From assembly GCF_000372745.1 (NCBI RefSeq), contig NZ_KB889561.1, positions 412,886 through 458,752 of the forward strand: 45,867 nucleotides of DNA. Direction: 5' to 3'. The notes under the pieces are model-generated. The model ran no database searches, was not told where the DNA came from, and was given only the letters and a program-made list of their open reading frames with translations. Of this stretch, positions 36,619 to 45,867 are shown piece by piece; positions within the stretch are counted from its first letter, which is position 1; each line of letters starts with the position of its first letter. A program made the translations under genes and the position numbers. The DNA is from Embleya scabrispora DSM 41855. Its GTDB lineage: Bacteria > Actinomycetota > Actinomycetes > Streptomycetales > Streptomycetaceae.

Positions 36619-39309
36619 TCAGCGCGAATCCGCATCCGTCGCGGTCACGACGGCGGCACGGCCGGCCTCCAGGCGGGCGGCCGGCAGTCGAAAAGGTGAG
36701 CAGGACAGATAGTCCACCCCGACCTCGTGGAAGAACCGGATCGACTCCGGGTCGCCCGCGTGTTCCCCGCACACCCCGATCCGCAGCCCCGGACTCGCCC
36801 GCCGGCCCTCCCGCGTGGCCAGGTCGACCAGCCGGCCGACGCCCGCGCGGTCGATGGTCTCGAACGGCGAGACGTCGAGGATGCCCCGCTCCAGGTAGCC
36901 GGCCAGGAAGGACGCCTCGGCGTCGTCACGGGACAGGCCCCAGGTGGTCTGGGTCAGGTCGTTGGTGCCGAACGAGAAGAAGTCCGCGACCGGCGCGATG
37001 GTCGCGGCGGTCAGCGCGGCCCTGGGCAGTTCGATCATGGTGCCCACCGGACAGTGCACCGGTGTCCCGGCCGCCTGTCCGACCTCGGCCAGGACCCGTT
37101 CGACCTCCGCGCGCACGATGCGCAGTTCCTCGACGGTGGCCACCAGCGGGATCATGATCTCCGCCCGCGGATCACCGCCGGCGCGCACCCGCGCGACCAC
37201 CGCTTCGCCGATGGCCCGCACCTGGGTGGCCACCAGCCCGGGAATGGTCAGCGCCAGCCGTACCCCGCGCAGACCCAGCATCGGATTCTGCTCGTGCAGG
37301 CGCTCGATCGCCTCGTGGACGCGCACCGCGCGCGGCTCGGGCTCCTCGCCCCTGGCCCGGGCCCGGGCCAGCCGGAGCGCCGACTCGGTGTGGTCGGGCA
37401 GGAATTCGTGCAGCGGCGGGTCGAGCAGCCGGATGGTCACGGGCAGGCCGTCCATCGCCGCGAGCAACTCGGTGAAGTCCTCGCGCTGGAGCGGCAGCAA
37501 GGCGTCCAGGGCGAGCCGGCGATCGGCGTCGGTACGGGCCAGGATCAGGTCCTCGACGAGGGGGCGACGCGGGCCCAGGAACATGTGCTCGGTACGACAC
37601 AGCCCGATCCCGCGGGCGCCGAAGCGCCGGGCCCGGGCCGCGTCCTCGGCCGTGTCGGCATTCGCCAGGACGTGCAATCGCCGTACCGCGTCCGCCTGTT
37701 CCAGGAAACGGGCGACCGCCTCGACCACGCCGGCCGAACGTACACCGGTCTCCAGGTAGCGGCTGACCGGCGAGGGCACCAGCGCCAACGCGCCCGCGTA
37801 CACCGTGCCGGCCGTACCGTCCACCGAGACCGTGGCGCCCTGTTCGAGCACGGTCCCGTCGGCGCCGGTGCAGCGTCGGCCCTCGACATCGATGTCCAGG
37901 TCGGCCGCGCCGCACACGCACACCTTGCCCATGCCCCGGGCCACCACCGCCGCGTGGCTGGTCTTGCCGCCCCGGCCGGTCACCACGGCCTCGGCGGCGA
38001 TCATGCCGGGCAGGTCGTCCGGGCGGGTCTCCGGGCGGACCAGCACGACCCGTTCGCCGGTCGCGGCCCGCCGGACGGCCTCGGCCACGTCGAACACCAC
38101 CGCGCCGACCGCGGCGCCCGGCGAGGCCGGGACACCGTGCGCCAGCGGTGCGCCGTCCGCCTGCGTGTCGAAGCGCGGGAAGGTCAGCTGGTCCAACTGC
38201 CGGCCGTCCACCCGGGCGAGCGCCTGCGCCCAGGTGATCGTCCCCTCGTCCACGAGCGCACAGGCGATCCGGAAGGCGGCCTCGGCGGTCCGCTTGCCCA
38301 CCCGGGTCTGCAGCACCCACAACCGGCCGCGCTCGATGGTGAACTCGACGTCGCACAGGTCGCGATAGTGCGCTTCGAGCAGCCGCAACACCGCGATCAG
38401 GCGTTCGTACGAGAAGGGGTCCAGCCGCTCGAGGTTCTGGAGCGGCAGCGCGTCGCGGACCCCGGAGACCACGTCCTCGCCCTGCGCGTCGGGCAGATAG
38501 TCGCCGTACACGCCGGGCCGCCCGGTGCCGGGGTCGCGGGTGAACGCGACGCCGGTGCCCGAGTCCCGGCCCGAGTTGCCGAAGACCATCGCCTGCACCG
38601 TCACCGCCGTGCCCAGGTCGTCCGGGATGTGCTCGCGCCGCCGATAGACCCGGGCCCGCTCGCCGTTCCACGACCGAAAGACCGCCAGGACGGCGCCGGC
38701 GAGTTGTTCGCGCGGATCCTGCGGAAACTCCTCGCCCGCGACCTCGCGCACGATGCGCCGAAACTCCCCGACGATCTCGGTCAACTCACCGACGCCCAGC
38801 CCGAGATCGTCGGCCACTCCCAGGCGCCGCCGGTATCGGGTGAGCACCTCCTCGAAGCGCGCCGCGGGCACGCCCAGCACGGTGGCTCCGTACATCTGCA
38901 CCAGGCGCCGATACGAGTCCCACGCGAAGCGCTCCCGGCCGCTCGCCGCGGCCAGACCGAGCACCGAGGTGTCGTTGAGGCCGACGTCGAGGATCGTGTC
39001 CATCATGCCGGGCATGGAGAACCGGGCACCGGAGCGCACCGAGACCAGCAGCGGGTCGTCGGCCGCTCCCAGCCGTCGCCCGATCGAGCGCTCCAGGCCG
39101 GCGAGGTGTTCGGCGATCTCGTCCGCCAGTGCGCTCGGCGGCGCGCCCGTGCGCAGGAAGACCCGGCACGCGTCCGTGCCGATCGTGAAGCCCGGCGGGA
39201 CGGGCAGCCCCAGCCGGGTCATCTCGGCGAGGTTCGCCCCTTTGCCGCCGAGCAGTTCGGCCTGCTCCCGGGAACCTTCGCCGAAGTCGTACACGTACGC
39301 GGTCGCCAT
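36619..39309 (-). CDS. ppdK: Pyruvate, phosphate dikinase
   Basis: 896 residues, full length. It interconverts pyruvate + ATP + Pi and PEP + AMP + PPi. Seen: the N-terminal ATP-grasp region with GGKGANLAEMTRLGLPVPPGF and SVRSGARFSMPGMMDTILDVGLN; the central phosphohistidine domain with GRGGKTSHAAVVARGMG, whose TSH holds the catalytic His; and the C-terminal TIM barrel with FGARGIGLCRTEHMF, LEQNPMLGLRG-like, SFGTNDLTQTTWG and the catalytic Cys in GVCGEHAGD. GGAAGG lies 7 nt before ATG 39309; the ATG at 39315 is too close to the site. It is monocistronic and supports PEP supply under gluconeogenic growth. Confidence 0.97.
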   Translation of the reverse strand: MATAYVYDFGEGSREQAELLGGKGANLAEMTRLGLPVPPGFTIGTDACRVFLRTGAPPSALADEIAEHLAGLERSIGRRLGAADDPLLVSVRSGARFSMPGMMDTILDVGLNDTSVLGLAAASGRERFAWDSYRRLVQMYGATVLGVPAARFEEVLTRYRRRLGVADDLGLGVGELTEIVGEFRRIVREVAGEEFPQDPREQLAGAVLAVFRSWNGERARVYRRREHIPDDLGTAVTVQAMVFGNSGRDSGTGVAFTRDPGTGRPGVYGDYLPDAQGEDVVSGVRDALPLQNLERLDPFSYERLIAVLRLLEAHYRDLCDVEFTIERGRLWVLQTRVGKRTAEAAFRIACALVDEGTITWAQALARVDGRQLDQLTFPRFDTQADGAPLAHGVPASPGAAVGAVVFDVAEAVRRAATGERVVLVRPETRPDDLPGMIAAEAVVTGRGGKTSHAAVVARGMGKVCVCGAADLDIDVEGRRCTGADGTVLEQGATVSVDGTAGTVYAGALALVPSPVSRYLETGVRSAGVVEAVARFLEQADAVRRLHVLANADTAEDAARARRFGARGIGLCRTEHMFLGPRRPLVEDLILARTDADRRLALDALLPLQREDFTELLAAMDGLPVTIRLLDPPLHEFLPDHTESALRLARARARGEEPEPRAVRVHEAIERLHEQNPMLGLRGVRLALTIPGLVATQVRAIGEAVVARVRAGGDPRAEIMIPLVATVEELRIVRAEVERVLAEVGQAAGTPVHCPVGTMIELPRAALTAATIAPVADFFSFGTNDLTQTTWGLSRDDAEASFLAGYLERGILDVSPFETIDRAGVGRLVDLATREGRRASPGLRIGVCGEHAGDPESIRFFHEVGVDYLSCSPFRLPAARLEAGRAAVVTATDADSR

Positions 39310-39631
39310 GGGCATCCCTTCCCGCACGGTAGGCCCGCGAAGAACGGCCCGTACCGACGCGTGCCACCGGGCGCGGCCGGCGCGGATGCCCGTCCGGTCC
39401 GCCGAAGCCTCGCCGGCGTCCCCGCATGGGCCGGGAACGCTCGCGTCCACGGCCCGTCAACGCCCGTCGCGATCGTCACGACGTCGACACCGGCTGTCTT
39501 TCAGGGTAACGCCGCGCCGGGATGGCGCCGGCGCATCGCGTCCGGGCGGCCGGCGGCCGCCCGGGACGATCCGCGGCGGGTGTCGGCGCCACGCGATGAG
39601 CGTCCCGGGCGGGTCCGGGGAACGTGCCGGG
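39310..39631. other. Intergenic region upstream of ppdK
   Basis: 322 bases separating the tail-like cluster from ppdK on the same strand. No gene, hairpin or clear promoter hexamers are visible. The ppdK promoter is expected here. Confidence 0.45.
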
Positions 39632-40795
39632 TCAGCCGTCGGTCAGTCGCAGCACCAGGTTCGCCCGGTCGATGGCCTCCAGGACGGGGTCGGGGGCGAC
39701 CTCCGCGGCGCGGGCCGCCTCGACGAGGTCCTCGGGGTCGGTCCGGGCCAGGTCGGCCACCGTGCGGTCGCCGAGCAGGTCGGCCAGGCGTGCGGTGCGC
39801 GAGACACCGAGCAGCCGGCGCGCGGGCATGGCCCGGACCTGCTCCGGCCCGTCGGCCGCCAGGATCTCCCGGGCGTGGGTCGAGGCGAAGGCGTGCGCCA
39901 GCGCCTGGCGGGTGACGTCGCTCCAGCCCGCGGCTTCCCGACCGTCCCCGGATTGCCCGCAGTAGAAGCCGAACCCGCCGAACGAGGCGGTGAATCGGCG
40001 GTTGCGCAGTTGGTCGACGCTCAACGTGCCGTCGGCGGCGACGGTGAAGTCGGCCAGCACCACCCACGGTTGGGTGGGACAGCGCGGGCACGGACGGGTG
40101 CCCGTGTCGGTGATCCGGGACGAACACCCGGTGGTCTCCTGTCGGGTGCCGTCCTCGCCCTCGACGTACACGTCGGGCAGCGTGTCCAGCACGCCCAGCG
40201 TGAAGCCCTCGCGGACCCGGCTGTACTCGCACGCGGTGTCCTCGCACCCGCACCCGGCCGCCGCCACCGGCACGGTGAGGCACTCGTCGTAGCGCACCGC
40301 GAGATAATACGTACGCCCGGGTTCGCGGCGCTCGCGCACCGGCGCGCACCACGGGTCGGTCGGCGGCGGGCAACCGTCGGTACCGCCCGGCAGCGCGTCG
40401 CGCACATCCACCCTGACCCGGTGGTCGACCACGATCTCGTCCCCGTACGGGCCCAGCACGTAGCCGGGCGACACGTCCAGGAGCCAGGGCAGCCGACCGC
40501 CGTCGCCGAAGCGGACCGTGCGCACGGTCACCCCGCACACCACGCCCCACCCGTGCAGCAACCGGTTGTGCCGGCGCATGCGCTCCAGCAGCCAGACACC
40601 GGTCTGGGCCAGATCCTCCGGGCCGACGAGTTGGCCGCCGAACCAGCGCGGGCGCAGCCGCCCCGTGGCGCTGCCCGCCAGGCAGTCGCCGCATCCGCAG
40701 GACGAGGTCCCGCCTGCTCCGCCGGCTCCGTCGCAGCCGCATCCGCAGCCGCCCTGCCCGGCCACCGCAATGGGCCGGATCGTTTGCTCGTGCAC
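39632..40795 (-). CDS. Cysteine-rich tail-cluster protein, paralogue 3
   Basis: 387 residues from GTG 40795 (AAGGA 8 nt upstream; TTG 40801 is possible). The first 35 residues are Gly/Cys-rich (GGCGCGCDGAGG...SCGCGDCL). A domain follows (about 45-125) beginning WFGGQLVGPEDLAQ...RRHNRLLHGWGVVCGVTV, then DVSPGYVLGPYGDEIVV. This is the module shared with the proteins encoded at 40932-42890 and 44819-45787. After a strand YYLAVRYDECLTVPV comes a second Cys cluster GCGCEDTACEYSRVREGF and later CSSRITDTGTRPCPRC. The C-terminal 80 residues contain helical LLGVSRTARLADLLG segments. No catalytic motif is evident. Similar proteins occur, as unknowns, in phage-tail-like clusters; a structural or metal-binding role is inferred. 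Confidence 0.75.
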   Translation of the reverse strand: MHEQTIRPIAVAGQGGCGCGCDGAGGAGGTSSCGCGDCLAGSATGRLRPRWFGGQLVGPEDLAQTGVWLLERMRRHNRLLHGWGVVCGVTVRTVRFGDGGRLPWLLDVSPGYVLGPYGDEIVVDHRVRVDVRDALPGGTDGCPPPTDPWCAPVRERREPGRTYYLAVRYDECLTVPVAAAGCGCEDTACEYSRVREGFTLGVLDTLPDVYVEGEDGTRQETTGCSSRITDTGTRPCPRCPTQPWVVLADFTVAADGTLSVDQLRNRRFTASFGGFGFYCGQSGDGREAAGWSDVTRQALAHAFASTHAREILAADGPEQVRAMPARRLLGVSRTARLADLLGDRTVADLARTDPEDLVEAARAAEVAPDPVLEAIDRANLVLRLTDG

Positions 40796-40931
40796 GCTCA
40801 ACGTCCTTCAGCTCCTCGATGTGCGTCGTCCAGTGCCGTGGCCGCGACCGGGTGGCGCCGCCCCGCCGATTCCCCGGGCCGGCCCCCTCCGGGCGATCCC
40901 GTGCGATGGCGCCGCGCGCCCGTGTCGGCGC

Positions 40932-42890
40932 TCACTCCGACGCCACCTCGAACGCGAGGTGCACGAACCCACCGGGGTCGCCGTCGAACAGGTCGACGTC
41001 GACGCTCGACCGGGCGCCGAGCGCGGACACCGGCAGTGACGGCGAGAGGGTCTGTTGCCCGGACCAGATCGAGAAGAGCGTGTGGTTGTCCAGCCCGGTC
41101 CCGGCGAAGTCCGCGTCCAGCGCCGGGGCCGGCTCCTCCGCGCCCACCACGAGCGCCGCGTTCGCGGCCGACACGCGTACCTGGAGCAGGAATTCGCCGG
41201 CCGGTTCGCCCTCGACCGGGAGCCGCGCCCCCGCCGCCTCGAACACGTACGTCACCGACTCCGGATCCGCGTCGGAGCGCTTCGGCGCGCCGGGACCCAG
41301 CTCCAGGCGCCGGAAGCCGACGAGCCGGTCCCCCTCGCGCTGTGCCTGGAACAACCGGACCCATCCGCCCGGTTCGGCCGTCGCCGCGTCGGCGAGGGCC
41401 CGATCCACCGTGAGCTCGACGTGCGGGGTGCGAACGAAACGGGTCCACTCCCGGCGCAGCGCCCCGGCGGCGTCCAGCCGCGATCCGCCCGGCGGCCACA
41501 CCCGCAGCAGTCGCGGGCCGGCCGCGCCTCTGGCGGTCGGCGGGGGCGGCGGGGTGAACACGTGCAACTCACCGCCCTGCGTCCCGTTCCCGGACGGGAA
41601 CGGCGGCACCGCCGCGAGCGGCGCCCGATCCACCAGCGCGGCCAGACCGGTGTCCTTGGCGCCGCCGGGGTTCAGCGCCCACAGCGCGTCGCGGTCGGCG
41701 ACGGTGAGCCCGGTGCCCACCAGGTCGGGGTCCAGGGCCGAGCCGTCCGGACCCTGCGCCTTCGGCGGCCCGGAGACGGGCACTCGGAGGCCGACCACGA
41801 ACACGGTCGAGGTGAGCAGCCCGTTGCCCTCCAGCTCGACCGCGTACGCCACCCCCTCGCCGCCCGGCGGCACCGTGATCCGGGTGAAGGCGCCGCCGGT
41901 CCGGGACAACTTCAGCCGTCGTACGCCGGTGTGGTCGAGCTGCCACAGGCCCAGCCACGGATTCGGCGCATCGAACGCCGCGTCGACGAGCGGGCGGTCG
42001 AAGGCGATCTCCATGCGCTTGTCGGCCACGAACGCCCGCCAGGTGGCAGCCGTCGCGGCGGCGCCGACCTGCGGCCACAGTGCGGTGATCCGGGGCGCGA
42101 AGGTGTGGCCGGCACAGCACCGGTCCACCCGCTCGGCCAGGCACATGAGCAGGTCGAACAACACCCGGTTGGAGTACACGACCGGCCGCGCGGTGACCGC
42201 GTCCAGGTCCGGCTCCTGCTCGGGTTCGTAGGTGACGGTCGCCAGGACCAGGCAGTCGTCGTCGCACCCGCACTCGTGCTCGACCGTGTCGGCGACCTGC
42301 TCGCGCCGATCGAAGTCCTCGCCGCGCCGGGCGGGGAAGATGGCCGCGCACTGCTCCTCGGTCAGACCGACCGGGTCCGGCTCACCCTCGGTGATCCGGA
42401 TCAGGAAACGCTCCAGGGTGAGCGAGGGCACGCACTCCTCGCGCACCTCGCAGTCCACCACCGGCATCCGCACGAACTCGGTCCCGCATTCGTGCCGACA
42501 CAGTCGAATCGCGACCGTACCCTCGCGGACCGGCTCCCCGCGCGGTGCGCCGGCGCAGTCGGTGGGCTGGTACGGCTCGTCGATGCGCACCGGGTGATCC
42601 ACCACGATCAGCCGGCCGTGGCCGTCCACCGCGGCGCCGGGGCAGATGGTCACCGCGCCGTCGTCGGCCAACTCCGCGTCCAGCCCGCACAGCACCCCGG
42701 GGCCCAGCCCCAGGCGAGCCAGTGTGGCCGCGGTCCGTCGGTGGTAGCCCTGTTCGAGGTTCCAGTGCCGGACGTCCATCAGCTTGCCCGGGTAGAAGCG
42801 GTTGCGTACCGGCGGCGCGGGAGCCGCGTCCGCACCCCCGTCGCAGCCGCATCCCGTGTCCGCCGCGTGGTCCTGACGGTGCTGACTCAC
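40932..42890 (-). CDS. Cysteine-rich tail-cluster protein, paralogue 2
   Basis: 652 residues from GTG 42890. It opens with a short TGCGCDGG motif, then the shared domain (about 28-110): RFYPGKLMDVRHWNLEQGYHRRTAATLARLGLGPGVLCGLDAEL...VTICPGAAVDGHGRLIVVDHPVRI. A Cys-rich middle follows (CRHECGTEFVRMPVVDCEVREECVPS, HECGCDDDCLV, DRCCAGHTF). The long C-terminal part (about 270-650) is strand-rich, with alternating acidic/hydrophobic patterns and two internal Ig-like repeats (segments ending RLKLSRTGGAFTRITV and RLELGPGAPKRSDAD). It starts 6 bp after the stop of the preceding gene, so it is cotranscribed. Function unknown; a fibre or adaptor component is a guess from context. Confidence 0.75.
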   Translation of the reverse strand: MSQHRQDHAADTGCGCDGGADAAPAPPVRNRFYPGKLMDVRHWNLEQGYHRRTAATLARLGLGPGVLCGLDAELADDGAVTICPGAAVDGHGRLIVVDHPVRIDEPYQPTDCAGAPRGEPVREGTVAIRLCRHECGTEFVRMPVVDCEVREECVPSLTLERFLIRITEGEPDPVGLTEEQCAAIFPARRGEDFDRREQVADTVEHECGCDDDCLVLATVTYEPEQEPDLDAVTARPVVYSNRVLFDLLMCLAERVDRCCAGHTFAPRITALWPQVGAAATAATWRAFVADKRMEIAFDRPLVDAAFDAPNPWLGLWQLDHTGVRRLKLSRTGGAFTRITVPPGGEGVAYAVELEGNGLLTSTVFVVGLRVPVSGPPKAQGPDGSALDPDLVGTGLTVADRDALWALNPGGAKDTGLAALVDRAPLAAVPPFPSGNGTQGGELHVFTPPPPPTARGAAGPRLLRVWPPGGSRLDAAGALRREWTRFVRTPHVELTVDRALADAATAEPGGWVRLFQAQREGDRLVGFRRLELGPGAPKRSDADPESVTYVFEAAGARLPVEGEPAGEFLLQVRVSAANAALVVGAEEPAPALDADFAGTGLDNHTLFSIWSGQQTLSPSLPVSALGARSSVDVDLFDGDPGGFVHLAFEVASE

Positions 42891-42896
42891 TTGTGC

Positions 42897-44822
42897 TCAA
42901 CCCCTTGGAGATGGTCGGGTGGTCGACCCGCGACCGCCTGGTGTGGGAAGCGTCGTGTCGAGGCGTGTCTCGACGGGACCGCCGACGTGCGCCGCGGCCG
43001 GCCCGGGCAGCCGGATCGAGGTGCCGAGCGCGGGGCCGGCACCCGCGGCCCAGTCGGGCGGCGGGCCGGCGACGTAGCTGTCGACGCCGACCAGTTGCGG
43101 AATCGCGCCGCGCCGCTCGGCCCGCACCCGCGCGAACACGTGTGCCGGACGCTCCCGTTCGACCACGCGGGCGATCTCGGGCACCGCCTCGGCGTGTTCC
43201 GGCGGAACGTGCACGCACACCCGGTGCGCGAACGCGGCGTACAGCGGCGAACCGCGGTCCTGCGCCGGAATCAGGTGGGCGCCGTCGAGTACGGCCGTGG
43301 CGTCCAGGACAGGCGGCCCCGGATCCGCGAGGTGCACCGCGGTGTCCCGGCCGAGTCCGCCACTGCCCAACCGCCAGATATGGGCCCCGAGCAGCGGCTC
43401 GGACAGCCGCACGGTGACGCCGGTCTCCCGGGCGATCGCCTCGATCAGCCCGACCGGCGTGCCGCGGCGACCGTGCGCGGCGTACGCCCCGGCGATGTCC
43501 GCGCGGCGCGCGGCCGAGTCGGCAAAGCGGGACGACGGCGCGGCGTCCACCCAGCCGGCGAGCCGCTCCAGCCACGGGTCGTCCGGACGGTCCGGGGCCG
43601 AGCCCGGGTCGAGCGAGGCGGGCAGTTCCGCCAACTCGCGCACCGACGCCTCGTGTGCGCCGGCGAACAGACCCAGCAGTCGGCCCAGCGTGCCCGAGCC
43701 GTCGTCGTCGCCGGTGTACGCGGCGGGCAGCGCGTCCAGCAGCCCCCGGCCCACGTGTTCGACGCGCACGTCGTCCACACGCGGTGTGCCGCGCCCGTCG
43801 CCGAGCAGTTCGACCGCGATCCACAACCGGGCGCCGGGCGATGCCGGACCGGCCAGCACCCGAACGTCCAAGCCGTCGAGTGGGCCGGCCCGCCAACGGC
43901 CCGGGGCGCTCGGCACGGGCGCGTCGTCCGGGTCCGCGCTCGCCGGATCGGGCGGATCGGGCGTGATTCCGGGCGGTGCGAGCATCGTCCACAGCCGCAC
44001 GTGCGTGCCGGACGGCGCGGGTTCCGCGAGCAACACCCGCACCCGGTCCCAGTGTTCGATGCCGGGTGGCTCGATCGGCGCGGGCAGCACGAGCACGCCG
44101 CGCGTCCCGGTGCGCCGGGCGCCCAGTCGGGCGATGCCACCCGGGCCCGCCACGAACACGCGTCCGCAACGGTCGACGCCGATCCCGGCGAGGTCGCCGG
44201 CGGCCAGGACCCGGGCCGGTGAGCCGTCGTCCGGGACCAGCACGACACCCGGCCCCGGCCGCTGCCGGGCACCGCCGACCACGAGCACGCCGTCGGACAC
44301 CCGGACCGCCGCCAGACCGCCGACCCGCTCGCGGGCCGCGCGCAGCGCCGGGTCCTCGGCGGGCGGCGGATCGGTCCACGGGGTCAGGTACTCGCCGGTG
44401 TCGGCACGCACGACCACGCCGCGCGCCCGACGCGCCCGGGCACCACGCCCGTCACCCGGCTCGTCCCCGACCACCAGCAGCCGCCCGCCGTCCAGCAGCC
44501 ACAGCCCCCGCGGCCCGCGCGGCGCAGCGCGATCCCCGGTCGCCACGTCCAGGCAGCCCAGCACGCACACCAGATGGTCGCAACCGTCCACCCGCAGCAC
44601 CCGGCCGTGCCCCGGATCGGCGACCAGGACCGTGCCGTCGCCCAGGACGACCAGCCCCAGCGGGCCGCCCACCGGATCCAGGTCGGCGGCGGCGATCGGT
44701 TCAAGGGCCGCGGCGCCCGGGCTCAGCACCACCCGCTCGCCGTCCGCTCGCACCCCCTCGAAGCGGGCTCCCGGCCAGCGCCCCAGCGCGTTGACCCAGC
44801 GGTAGCCGGTCGCACCGCTCAC
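42897..44822 (-). CDS. Phage tail-like protein with N-terminal beta-propeller
   Basis: 641 residues from GTG 44822, overlapping the preceding gene by GTGA. The N-terminal region (about 1-260) has repeated NHL/propeller-like strands: LGLVVLGDGTVLVADPGHGRVLRVD, GLWLLDGGRLLVVGD, LAAVRVSDGVLVVGG, GIGVDRCGRVFVAGPGGIARL. After an Asp/Pro-rich linker (about 285-305) and a beta segment, the C-terminal region (about 355-520) contains LLDALPAAYT...LGRLLGLFAGAHEASVRELAELPASLDP, PWLERLAGWVD and RRADIAGAYAAHGRRGTPVGLIEAIARETGV. This matches the phage tail/baseplate domain TIGR02242 (P2 gpI-like) found in contractile injection systems. A baseplate-proximal role is inferred. Confidence 0.8.
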   Translation of the reverse strand: MSGATGYRWVNALGRWPGARFEGVRADGERVVLSPGAAALEPIAAADLDPVGGPLGLVVLGDGTVLVADPGHGRVLRVDGCDHLVCVLGCLDVATGDRAAPRGPRGLWLLDGGRLLVVGDEPGDGRGARARRARGVVVRADTGEYLTPWTDPPPAEDPALRAARERVGGLAAVRVSDGVLVVGGARQRPGPGVVLVPDDGSPARVLAAGDLAGIGVDRCGRVFVAGPGGIARLGARRTGTRGVLVLPAPIEPPGIEHWDRVRVLLAEPAPSGTHVRLWTMLAPPGITPDPPDPASADPDDAPVPSAPGRWRAGPLDGLDVRVLAGPASPGARLWIAVELLGDGRGTPRVDDVRVEHVGRGLLDALPAAYTGDDDGSGTLGRLLGLFAGAHEASVRELAELPASLDPGSAPDRPDDPWLERLAGWVDAAPSSRFADSAARRADIAGAYAAHGRRGTPVGLIEAIARETGVTVRLSEPLLGAHIWRLGSGGLGRDTAVHLADPGPPVLDATAVLDGAHLIPAQDRGSPLYAAFAHRVCVHVPPEHAEAVPEIARVVERERPAHVFARVRAERRGAIPQLVGVDSYVAGPPPDWAAGAGPALGTSIRLPGPAAAHVGGPVETRLDTTLPTPGGRGSTTRPSPRG

Positions 44823-45787
44823 GCCCCCTCCACCCCCATCCACGCGATGTGCCAACCCAGTTCGGTCCGCACCAGGTTCGGCGTCCCCGGATCCGCGAGC
44901 ACCTGCGCCGGATTGAGCGGCAACGTCGTGGTGCCGCCGACGACACCGCCGATCCGCCCGGCGGGCAGTGGTACCACCACGGTCAGCCGACCCGGTTCCG
45001 CGCCGTCCACGTACGGCGTTCCGTCGAGCACACACGCCTGACCGTCGGGTGCGGCGGACGCGCTCAACTCCCGGTCTCCGTCCAGCCGGACCGTATAGGC
45101 GGGCGTGTCCCCGAAGCCCGCCGCGCCGGTGTCCACCACGGTGCGCAGTCCGATCACCACCCCCGACACGGGATCCTGGACGGCCGACCACGCGGTGCCG
45201 AACGCACCGGTCGTGCCGGTGGCCACGTACGGCGTCGGGAGCACCGCCAGGATCCGGCGCCCGGCCGGATCGGGCGGCGCGGTCAGCGCACAGCCGCGCA
45301 CGGCCACCGTCGCGAGCAATACGTCCAACCCTTCGCGCAGTTCGGCCGGCGTACACCAGCCCGCCGTCGGGCCGTCCGCGAGCCGCACCGCCCCGACCAC
45401 CGCGCAGGCTCCGGCCCGGGTCCGCACGTCGGCCTCGTCGTCCTCGGTCCAGCGCAGCGTCAGGCAGAACACCACGTCGCCGCCGTCCGGCCCGGCGGCC
45501 ACCGCCGGCACATCCAACTCGGCGCCGTCCGGCAGGATCAGGTCGCGTCCGAGCGCGTCCAGCGCGTAGCCCGCGCCGATCACCACGCGTCGCGCGCCCC
45601 GGGCGCCGGTGACCTCCAGCCCCAGTCCGACGCCCCACCCGTGCAGGACCCGGTTGTGCAGCCAGCGCCGGGAACGCTCCACCGTGACCGCGTCGTTCAG
45701 GTCGGCGGCGGCGAGCACCTGGCCGCCGAAGAAGGTCGGGCGATGCGTGGGCGGCAGCGCCGCCCCACTCGTGGTCGGGCCGGTCAT
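44819..45787 (-). CDS. Tail-cluster protein, paralogue 1 (no Cys clusters)
   Basis: 322 residues from ATG 45787 (GGGGAAAG upstream). It carries the shared domain at its N-terminus (about 15-90): TFFGGQVLAAADLNDAVTVERSRRWLHNRVLHGWGVGLGLEV...VVIGAGYALDALGRDLIL. It then passes to a strand-rich middle (VVFCLTLRWTEDDEADVRT...AVVGAVRLADG) and a C-terminal region with LPTPYVATGTTGAFGTAWSAV and LPAGRIGGVVGGTTTLPLNPAQVLADP. Unlike its two paralogues it lacks the CGC clusters. It is the first gene seen of the operon and overlaps the tail-domain gene by GTGA. A stop at 45845-45847 in another frame may end a further upstream gene, mostly outside the window. Confidence 0.75.
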   Translation of the reverse strand: MTGPTTSGAALPPTHRPTFFGGQVLAAADLNDAVTVERSRRWLHNRVLHGWGVGLGLEVTGARGARRVVIGAGYALDALGRDLILPDGAELDVPAVAAGPDGGDVVFCLTLRWTEDDEADVRTRAGACAVVGAVRLADGPTAGWCTPAELREGLDVLLATVAVRGCALTAPPDPAGRRILAVLPTPYVATGTTGAFGTAWSAVQDPVSGVVIGLRTVVDTGAAGFGDTPAYTVRLDGDRELSASAAPDGQACVLDGTPYVDGAEPGRLTVVVPLPAGRIGGVVGGTTTLPLNPAQVLADPGTPNLVRTELGWHIAWMGVEGA

Positions 45788-45867
45788 GCGGACTTTCCCC
45801 TCGATCGTGAACCCGGCCGGACACCGGGTGAACCCCCGGCCGCATCACCGGGACCGGGCCCGGCACG

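What the first reader, a model, noticed from the sequence alone, without database searches (positions are those of the whole stretch)
39632..45787. Four-gene tail-like operon built on three diverged copies of one N-terminal domain
Three of four adjacent genes encode proteins that share a roughly 75-residue N-terminal module: F-x-G-x-L, then N-R-x-L-x-G-x-G-V-x-x-G-(L/V), then P/A-G-x-x-(L/V)-D/G-x-x-G-x-x-(L/I)-(I/V). Their C-termini are unrelated by eye. The fourth gene, in the middle, has a phage-tail TIGR02242-like domain. GTGA overlap, a 6-bp gap and one short gap tie them into one transcript. This suggests a contractile injection/tail-like particle in which duplicated anchor domains present different C-terminal parts on the same particle site. 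The family has no assigned function that I know of.
Basis: partly seen in the sequence, partly recalled or inferred. Interest (0 to 1): 0.85.

Follow-up and report, generated by a model that had tools for sequence, protein, structure and literature searches.

The report
Multi-anchor contractile injection system baseplate
A soil actinomycete carries a phage-tail-like injection machine whose baseplate probably holds four old, related anchor proteins for the parts that touch a target; such machines are known, but the fixed set of anchors is a useful new detail.

Summary
Genes A, C and D (44819-45787, 40932-42890, 39632-40801, minus strand) share one N-terminal module; B (42897-44822) has a TIGR02242 domain. 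Next to the window lies an extracellular contractile injection system (eCIS) cluster: sheath, tube, spike, PAAR, gp25, two baseplate-J-type proteins, Pvc16-type cap, AAA+ ATPase, eCIS_core effector. It holds a fourth module copy, E, with a weak H-lectin match.

The module resembles the N-terminal domain of TssK (the T6SS baseplate trimer) and of the Anabaena CIS protein All3314. It very probably is, or is close to, "eBAP3", the baseplate-anchor domain of eCIS tail fibres published in January 2026. So the kind is known.

Beyond the text I saw: the copies are not recent duplicates. In 23 four-copy loci from five phyla they group by operon position (E-A-B-C-D), not by genome. B carries LG-repeat units like the TssG "feet" that dock TssK trimers, and the module mostly keeps hydrophobic residues at TssK's foot pockets. 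Best model: B is a TssG-like adaptor on which ancient anchor paralogues dock as trimers and present different C-termini. Docking, stoichiometry and targets are inferred. One foot per anchor gene was tested and not supported.

The parts
44819..45787 (-). gene A (position M2, directly upstream of B): TssK-like anchor module plus a C-terminal region conserved in its position group
   Evidence: NF053767 hit; M2 alignment of 30 rows with invariant or nearly invariant residues up to G318
45506..45745 (-). core of the anchor module in A (residues 15-94)
42897..44822 (-). gene B: TIGR02242 / Tail_P2_I, TssG-like baseplate wedge adaptor with a weak N-terminal NHL-repeat match
   Evidence: both domain hits below curated cut-offs; hhalign to TssG E 3e-4 against 0.45 for the TssK control
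43266..43376 (-). internal LG-repeat loop of B (candidate foot, aligned near TssG's LG loop)
42945..43097 (-). C-terminal tail of B with three LG-repeat-like units (candidate feet; degenerate here, the matrix finds only the first in this protein)
40932..42890 (-). gene C (position M3): anchor module plus long C-terminal part; some members of its position group have fibre-like C-termini (collagen, Ig)
42450..42812 (-). anchor module in C (residues 27-147)
39632..40801 (-). gene D (position M4): anchor module, Cys-rich segments, helical C-terminus
40244..40657 (-). anchor module in D (residues 49-186)
45784..45867 (-). 3' end of gene E (position M1) as far as the frame can be trusted across the assembly gap; the rest lies beyond the window (to 46878 in window frame, N at 45868-45982). 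Module copy with a weak H-lectin match

Best explanation
Genes E, A, B, C and D encode the outer part of the baseplate of an eCIS, probably in an Embleya species (Streptomycetaceae). B is the TssG-like wedge adaptor. E, A, C and D are four ancient paralogues built on a TssK-like shoulder domain, the eCIS baseplate-anchor type of which eBAP3 is the published example. Each probably forms a trimer whose top is gripped by an LG-repeat 'foot' of B, as TssG feet grip TssK trimers, and presents its own C-terminal part outward for target or membrane contact. Shown here: gene content, shared ancestry of the module, TssK/All3314 resemblance, positional orthology across phyla, LG-repeat enrichment in B, conserved pocket residues. 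Inferred: trimers, docking, which foot takes which anchor, binding targets, and whether the particle acts outside or inside the producer.
For: Core eCIS genes on the same strand. Profile of 61 M4-type proteins hits All3314 of the Anabaena CIS baseplate structure (7b5h, 18 chains) at E 5.6e-6, that of 30 M2-type proteins at 2e-4. Foldseek: D model to 6n38 and 5mwn (TssK) and 7b5h at E 1.3e-5 to 2.6e-5, probability 0.99-1.00; C model to a phi812 phage baseplate chain first (1.1e-5, probability 0.91), then 5y0e (TssK) 5e-5 and 7b5h 1.2e-4, probability 0.98 and 1.00. hhalign of 244 module rows to 18 TssK: E 7.2e-5, probability 63%, 99 columns; controls M-TssG 0.12 and B-TssK 0.45; these E-values are for single comparisons. 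TssK W8/L14/F19 form the foot pockets (PMC8406304 passages); at the columns that align with them (same spacing) the module has W, Y, F or H in 98% of 240 rows, and hydrophobic residues in 100% and 99% of 243 rows. B: beyond the first LG unit, a further site scores above the 95% shuffle level in 41 of 67 tails and above the 99% level in 27 (two of the 67, both counted, were anchored on a wrong first site); the internal loop has 1.21 units against 0.27 shuffled, n = 52 of 65. Architecture in 88 loci: 75 have B, 74 of those have 2 or more modules, 62 have 3 or more. 23 four-copy loci: 5 position changes on the IQ-TREE (least possible 3; shuffled mean 51.5); position recovered from other loci in 90 of 92 rows; nearest row in the own locus 0 of 92. 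C-termini: Collagen in 7 and Big_1 in 5 of 52 M3 proteins, Big_5 in 3 of 61 M4, H_lectin in E (E 0.0014, below cut-off).
Against: Foldseek TM-scores of these matches are low (about 0.10-0.31) and rmsd large (about 9-30 A) over whole chains, so the match is of local structure. D model pLDDT 78.6, pTM 0.65; C 79.8, pTM 0.46. C alone by sequence finds nothing in the PDB. hhalign of single position groups to TssK is weaker (M1 0.0011, M3 0.0043, M4 0.00059, M2 0.12). The tails were cut at a match to the first motif, so their raw enrichment (1.69 units against 0.29 shuffled) is partly by construction. The number of LG units does not follow the number of anchor genes (Spearman -0.06, n = 45; 20 more tails excluded for truncated context). 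In the window's own B no unit beyond the first is found by the matrix, and E has no aromatic at the first pocket column. Hydrophobic positions may be kept for folding rather than docking. The tree is not perfect: 2 of 92 rows fall with another position, and U1 needs 3 changes. The eBAP3 model was not available, so membership rests on described features. Most M proteins have no Pfam domain in the C-terminus.
Confidence: 0.76

Rival explanations
1. The four proteins are interchangeable receptor-binding tail fibres, a repertoire enlarged by lineage-specific duplication and recombination, as suggested for multi-fibre eCIS loci.
For: PMC12923769 calls such proteins fibres, reports up to five per locus, and describes 'evolved duplicates'. 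M3 and M4 C-termini vary and in some members include collagen and Ig domains.
Against: Copies group by operon position across five phyla; in 92 rows none is nearest to a row of its own locus. In four-copy loci M2 proteins vary least in length (288-423 aa from module to stop, median 307, n = 23), and only 1 of 30 M2 proteins has a Pfam hit (LysM).
Confidence: 0.15
2. Some anchors tether the particle to the producer's own membrane (as in the Anabaena and Streptomyces intracellular systems) and do not bind a foreign target.
For: Anabaena Cis13 and Cis12 connect to thylakoid membranes (PMC8894136 passages); the S. coelicolor particle stays cytoplasmic and needs the membrane protein CisA (PMC12237407 passages); this genome is probably of the same family.
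Against: S. coelicolor CIS is reported to lack clear tail-fibre homologues, whereas this locus has four anchor genes, one with a weak lectin-type match. I saw no obvious hydrophobic membrane segment in A, C or D when reading their sequences; no prediction was run.
Confidence: 0.2
3. The shared N-terminus is a chance similarity of GC-rich, Gly/Arg/Val-rich proteins.
For: A-C and C-E direct similarities are within reach of shuffles (4 and 3 of 500).
Against: A-D, C-D, A-E and D-E are reached by no shuffle, and profiles join all four; the same module recurs in the same operon place in five phyla.
Confidence: 0.01

Closest known systems
eBAP3-type eCIS tail fibres (Nachmias et al. 2026, PMC12923769)
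   Same: N-terminal baseplate-anchor domain with TssK-like shoulder structure, on Tail_P2_I adaptors, Actinobacteriota included, several fibres per locus, collagen-type shafts
   Different: The paper reports more than one fibre in 23.4% of its loci of all eBAP types; here 74 of 75 B-containing loci in a biased sample have two or more module genes, often on both sides of B, in orthologous positions
T6SS baseplate TssK-TssG (6n38, 5mwn, 5m30, 5y0e)
   Same: TssK N-terminal shoulder fold; TssG-like adaptor with LG-repeat feet
   Different: TssG has two feet and one kind of TssK per system (recalled); here mostly three to four anchor paralogues, and LG units in an internal loop plus a C-terminal tail. 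TssK's helical middle and head domains were not looked for
Anabaena thylakoid CIS protein All3314 (7b5h; by its 18 copies the crown protein Cis19, inferred)
   Same: Module matches its N-terminus by sequence profile and the protein by fold
   Different: The paper describes one crown protein in six trimers; C-terminal parts were not compared
Streptomyces coelicolor CIS (PMC12237407)
   Same: Probably the same bacterial family; wedge of two Cis11 and one Cis12, Cis16 cap
   Different: Reported without tail-fibre homologues, uses CisA; here two different baseplate-J-type genes and four anchor genes

Membership tests
eCIS | sheath, tube, spike, gp25, baseplate-J, PAAR, Pvc16 cap, AAA+ ATPase in one cluster | tested here: met
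   Pfam/NCBIfam hits (baseplate-J: one TIGR02243 hit over and one under the cut-off)
eCIS | eCIS_core (DUF4157-type) effector in the cluster | tested here: met
   PF13699 E 3e-29
eCIS | particle is made and released from cells | not testable with these tools
   needs microscopy
eBAP3 tail fibre | matches the published eBAP3 HMM | not testable with these tools
eBAP3 tail fibre | N-terminal domain of about 200 aa, TssK/shoulder-like, with a Tail_P2_I-type neighbour | tested here: met
   the profile itself spans 129 columns, and the Tail_P2_I hit of B is just below cut-off
eBAP5 (DUF6519) | match to Pfam DUF6519 | tested here: not met
   not among the families hit by 52, 61, 30 and 41 proteins of the four position groups nor by A, C, D, E; that this Pfam copy holds the family was not checked
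TssK | match to Pfam T6SS_VasE | tested here: not met
   no hit in A, C, D, E or their position groups; only the N-terminal domain is related
TssG / Tail_P2_I adaptor (B) | TIGR02242 or Tail_P2_I domain over cut-off | tested here: inconclusive
   41.9 of 51.85 bits and 19.2 of 20.6 bits; TIGR02242-TssG resemblance is published (PMC4604203 passages)
CIS13 family NF053767 | score over 370 bits | tested here: not met
   best 76.1 bits, N-terminal part only

The most novel reading that the evidence does not exclude
TIGR02242-type eCIS carry a fixed, ancient hetero-set of TssK-like anchors: an upstream pair and a downstream pair that diverged before the systems spread over at least five phyla. Each paralogue docks on its own foot of a multi-footed TssG-like adaptor, so the baseplate is an ordered hetero-collar in which some positions are structural triggers (M2-like) and others (M3, M4, M1) carry exchangeable target-binding parts.
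Probability: 0.33. Interest if true: 0.7.

Novelty: new member of a known kind. Interest (0 to 1): 0.5.

Why it matters
It places an unexplained actinomycete operon in a known machine. It also gives a testable rule: the anchor copies are largely orthologous by position across phyla, so one structure would explain a whole class of eCIS baseplates and show how T6SS-type TssK-TssG docking was multiplied. It tells anyone choosing a fibre to study which copies vary (M1, M3, M4) and which look structural (M2).

Tried and rejected
One foot per anchor gene: counts of LG units in B against number of module genes gave Spearman -0.06 (units) and -0.12 ([VILM]G pairs), n = 45 of 65 tails; rejected as a counting rule. 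By eye, locus L029 (one module) has one unit in its tail and several two-module loci about two, but these are few, and many are cut by contig ends.

Chance similarity: rejected. Membership in eBAP5: rejected. Phage origin: no hit of D in 50,697 phage records; 3 relatives among IMG/VR contigs, not followed up.

hhalign runs against TssK first used wrongly chosen reading frames or few usable proteins (9 of 20: E 7.2e-4) and were repeated with profile-chosen frames (18 of 20 proteins kept by length). TssG frames were re-chosen (20 rows, 2 of them short). The library for VIA-align was not available.

Rows dropped: L032 and L049 (same genomes as L027 and L028, inferred from equal contig lengths); 8 of 260 module rows with under 60 filled columns; 13 of 65 loops without an anchor; truncated loci where stated. 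The counts of 88, 75, 74 and 62 loci still include the two duplicates. The 80 genome loci were found by one short peptide pattern (best 80 of 100), so the sample is biased to loci with that pattern.

Full report
What is there. On the minus strand of the window lie A (44819-45787), B (42897-44822), C (40932-42890) and D (39632-40801). A, C and D start with one module: all hit NCBIfam CIS13_fam, weakly and with the N-terminus only. Direct pairwise scores are clear for A-D and C-D and weak for A-C; an iterated profile joins all. Downstream of D, on the same strand, lies a long ORF (36619-39450) that I take, from its sequence and from recall, for pyruvate phosphate dikinase.

Beyond the window. 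The window is part of a 482,739-base contig of an 11.4 Mb genome. A relative reported as the same genus (G020) has a contig equal in length to one of Embleya hyalina, so the genome is probably an Embleya (inferred; lineage). Upstream, in order of transcription, the cluster holds a LuxR-type regulator, an AAA+ ATPase, an eCIS_core protein with a Pput2613-like deaminase end, a Pvc16_N protein, sheath, tube, a CIS_tube protein with a sub-threshold tail-X match (LysM-like by my reading), a spike, PAAR, gp25 and two TIGR02243-type proteins. Then comes E, a fourth module gene with a weak H-lectin match, interrupted by an N gap, then A, B, C, D. This is an eCIS. The contig ends about 1.7 kb beyond the regulator, so genes further upstream were not seen.

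What the module is. AlphaFold2 models of D (pLDDT 78.6, pTM 0.65) and C (79.8, 0.46) have much the same order of strands and helices in the module. Foldseek's matches at E 0.001 or better are TssK, chains AA-AC of 7b5h (the Anabaena CIS baseplate) and, for C, phi812 phage baseplate chains, one of which is C's first hit. TM-scores are low and rmsd large over whole chains. By sequence, C alone finds nothing in the PDB, but the M4 profile hits All3314 in 7b5h (5.6e-6, 18 chains) and the M2 profile does too (2e-4). 18 copies agree with the six Cis19 crown trimers described in PMC8894136 (passages); that All3314 is Cis19 is inferred from this. hhalign of the module to TssK gives E 7.2e-5, probability 63%, over 99 columns. 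PMC12923769 (outline, sections 6, 7, 8, 11, 14, 16 and passages) defines eBAP1-5 anchor domains and says that eBAP3 fibres resemble TssK and sit on Tail_P2_I adaptors resembling TssG, up to four per baseplate. Its HMMs could not be read, so identity with eBAP3 is very likely but untested.

Distribution. CIS13_fam was found in 7 of 200 family genomes, the own one included. One scan of genome contigs gave 80 loci. With 7 stretches from six family genomes and the own one, 88 loci held 260 module genes. Architectures in order of transcription, M = module gene and B = TIGR02242 gene: MMBMM 23, BMMM 19, M alone 12, BMM 11, MBMM 9, BMMMM 6, MMBMMM 3, BBMMM 2, and one each of MM, BBMM, BM. Several short ones are cut by contig ends.

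Old paralogues. After dropping two duplicate genomes, 23 loci with U2, U1, D1 and D2 (92 rows; Actinomycetota, Cyanobacteriota, Chloroflexota, Acidobacteriota, Pseudomonadota; four of the loci are unnamed family genomes) were treed. Labels of position need 5 changes on a quick IQ-TREE (least 3; shuffled mean 51.5), or 7 on the larger FastTree against 45 or more in 200 within-locus shuffles. One branch, SH-aLRT 98, parts the upstream copies (U1, U2) from the downstream ones (D1, D2). Position is recovered from the other loci in 90 of 92 rows, and no row's nearest neighbour is in its own locus. Exceptions: the D1 copies of two Acidobacteriota loci fall among D2, and U1 is not one clade. In the 20 loci with exactly D1, D2 and D3, these fall mostly with D1 (19), D2 (20) and U2 (18) of the four-copy loci. 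The tree rests on 126 columns, and many forks are open.

Docking. PMC8406304 (passages) says that each TssG foot holds LG repeats which fill hydrophobic pockets of a TssK trimer formed by W8, L14 and F19, and that either foot is needed. TIGR02242 resembles TssG (PMC4604203 passages; here hhalign E 3e-4, probability 40%). Aligned B tails show up to three units of the form [VIL]GxxxxLGxDTxLxG. Because the tails were cut at the first motif, the fair test is the rest of the tail: a further site beats the 95% shuffle level in 41 of 67 and the 99% level in 27, two mis-anchored tails included. An internal loop, cut without regard to the motif, shows 1.21 units against 0.27 shuffled, n = 52. In the window's B, units read by eye are at residues 483-519, 576-586, 597-607 and 612-626; the matrix confirms only 576-586 there. 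The module has the fitting residues at the three pocket columns in 98-100% of rows; D has W, V, L; C has F, M, W; A has F, L, L; E has a gap, L, L. The simple count rule failed.

Function. C-termini in relatives: collagen (7 of 52) and Ig (5 of 52) in M3, Ig (3 of 61) in M4, single hits of ten families in M1 (41 scanned), one in M2 (30 scanned) (E 0.001 for M3 and M4, 0.01 for the others). Most have no known domain. I read this as anchors with exchangeable target-binding ends, M2 perhaps structural. No target is known.

Novelty. The machine and the anchor kind are known. In the text I saw and in the listings I found no statement of positional orthology of the anchors or of LG-repeat feet in TIGR02242 proteins; supplements and subscription papers were not seen, and PMC12923769 does mention loop-mediated attachment to Tail_P2_I. 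Passages only were also seen of PMC12210884, PMC11566945, PMC12998442 and PMC8213781.

Noticed in passing
G000:C1:474886-478587 (L007:287-3988, minus): eCIS_core (PF13699) protein with a C-terminal Pput2613-like deaminase domain: the probable injected effector of this system.
   Followed up: partly
L001:10914-12900, equal to window-frame 54528-56514: The VgrG-like spike seems split into two genes: a gpV-like part (Phage_base_V hit) and an upstream part ending at 55273 that I read as the other half, though it gave no Pfam hit.
   Followed up: partly
L001:3251-3477, equal to window-frame 46865-47091; also L001:2193-2238: A tandem array (period 59 or 119) that repeats ATG-type starts lies at and before the start of gene E. 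A 23-base repeat lies beside the N gap in E, so the assembly may have collapsed repeats there.
   Followed up: partly
window 39632-40801, residues 144-241 of D; also N-termini of C and D: Cys-rich segments; C184 invariant and C144, C186, C191, C238 nearly invariant in 61 M4-type proteins, possibly a metal site.
   Followed up: no
L080, L084, L091, L099, L101, L110, L111: Short proteins (185-220 aa open frames) that are little more than one module, with no TIGR02242 gene found by my profile in the fetched stretch.
   Followed up: no
window 42897-44822, N-terminal half of B: Weak NHL-repeat match (E 0.12, below cut-off) hints at a beta-propeller fused to the TssG-like part.
   Followed up: no
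L112, L113, L114: Three IMG/VR contigs encode relatives of the module; they may be misclassified eCIS or phages with TssK-like anchors.
   Followed up: no
NZ_CP108785.1 3531452-3532609 (in L156): A close relative of D (83.5% identity) lies on a 5.7 Mb linear replicon called a plasmid in Embleya sp. NBC_00888.
   Followed up: no
L001:3488-5737 and L001:5741-10267 (window-frame 47102-53881): Two different TIGR02243-type proteins (749 aa and an open frame of 1508 aa), perhaps a heterodimer in place of two equal wedge subunits.
   Followed up: no
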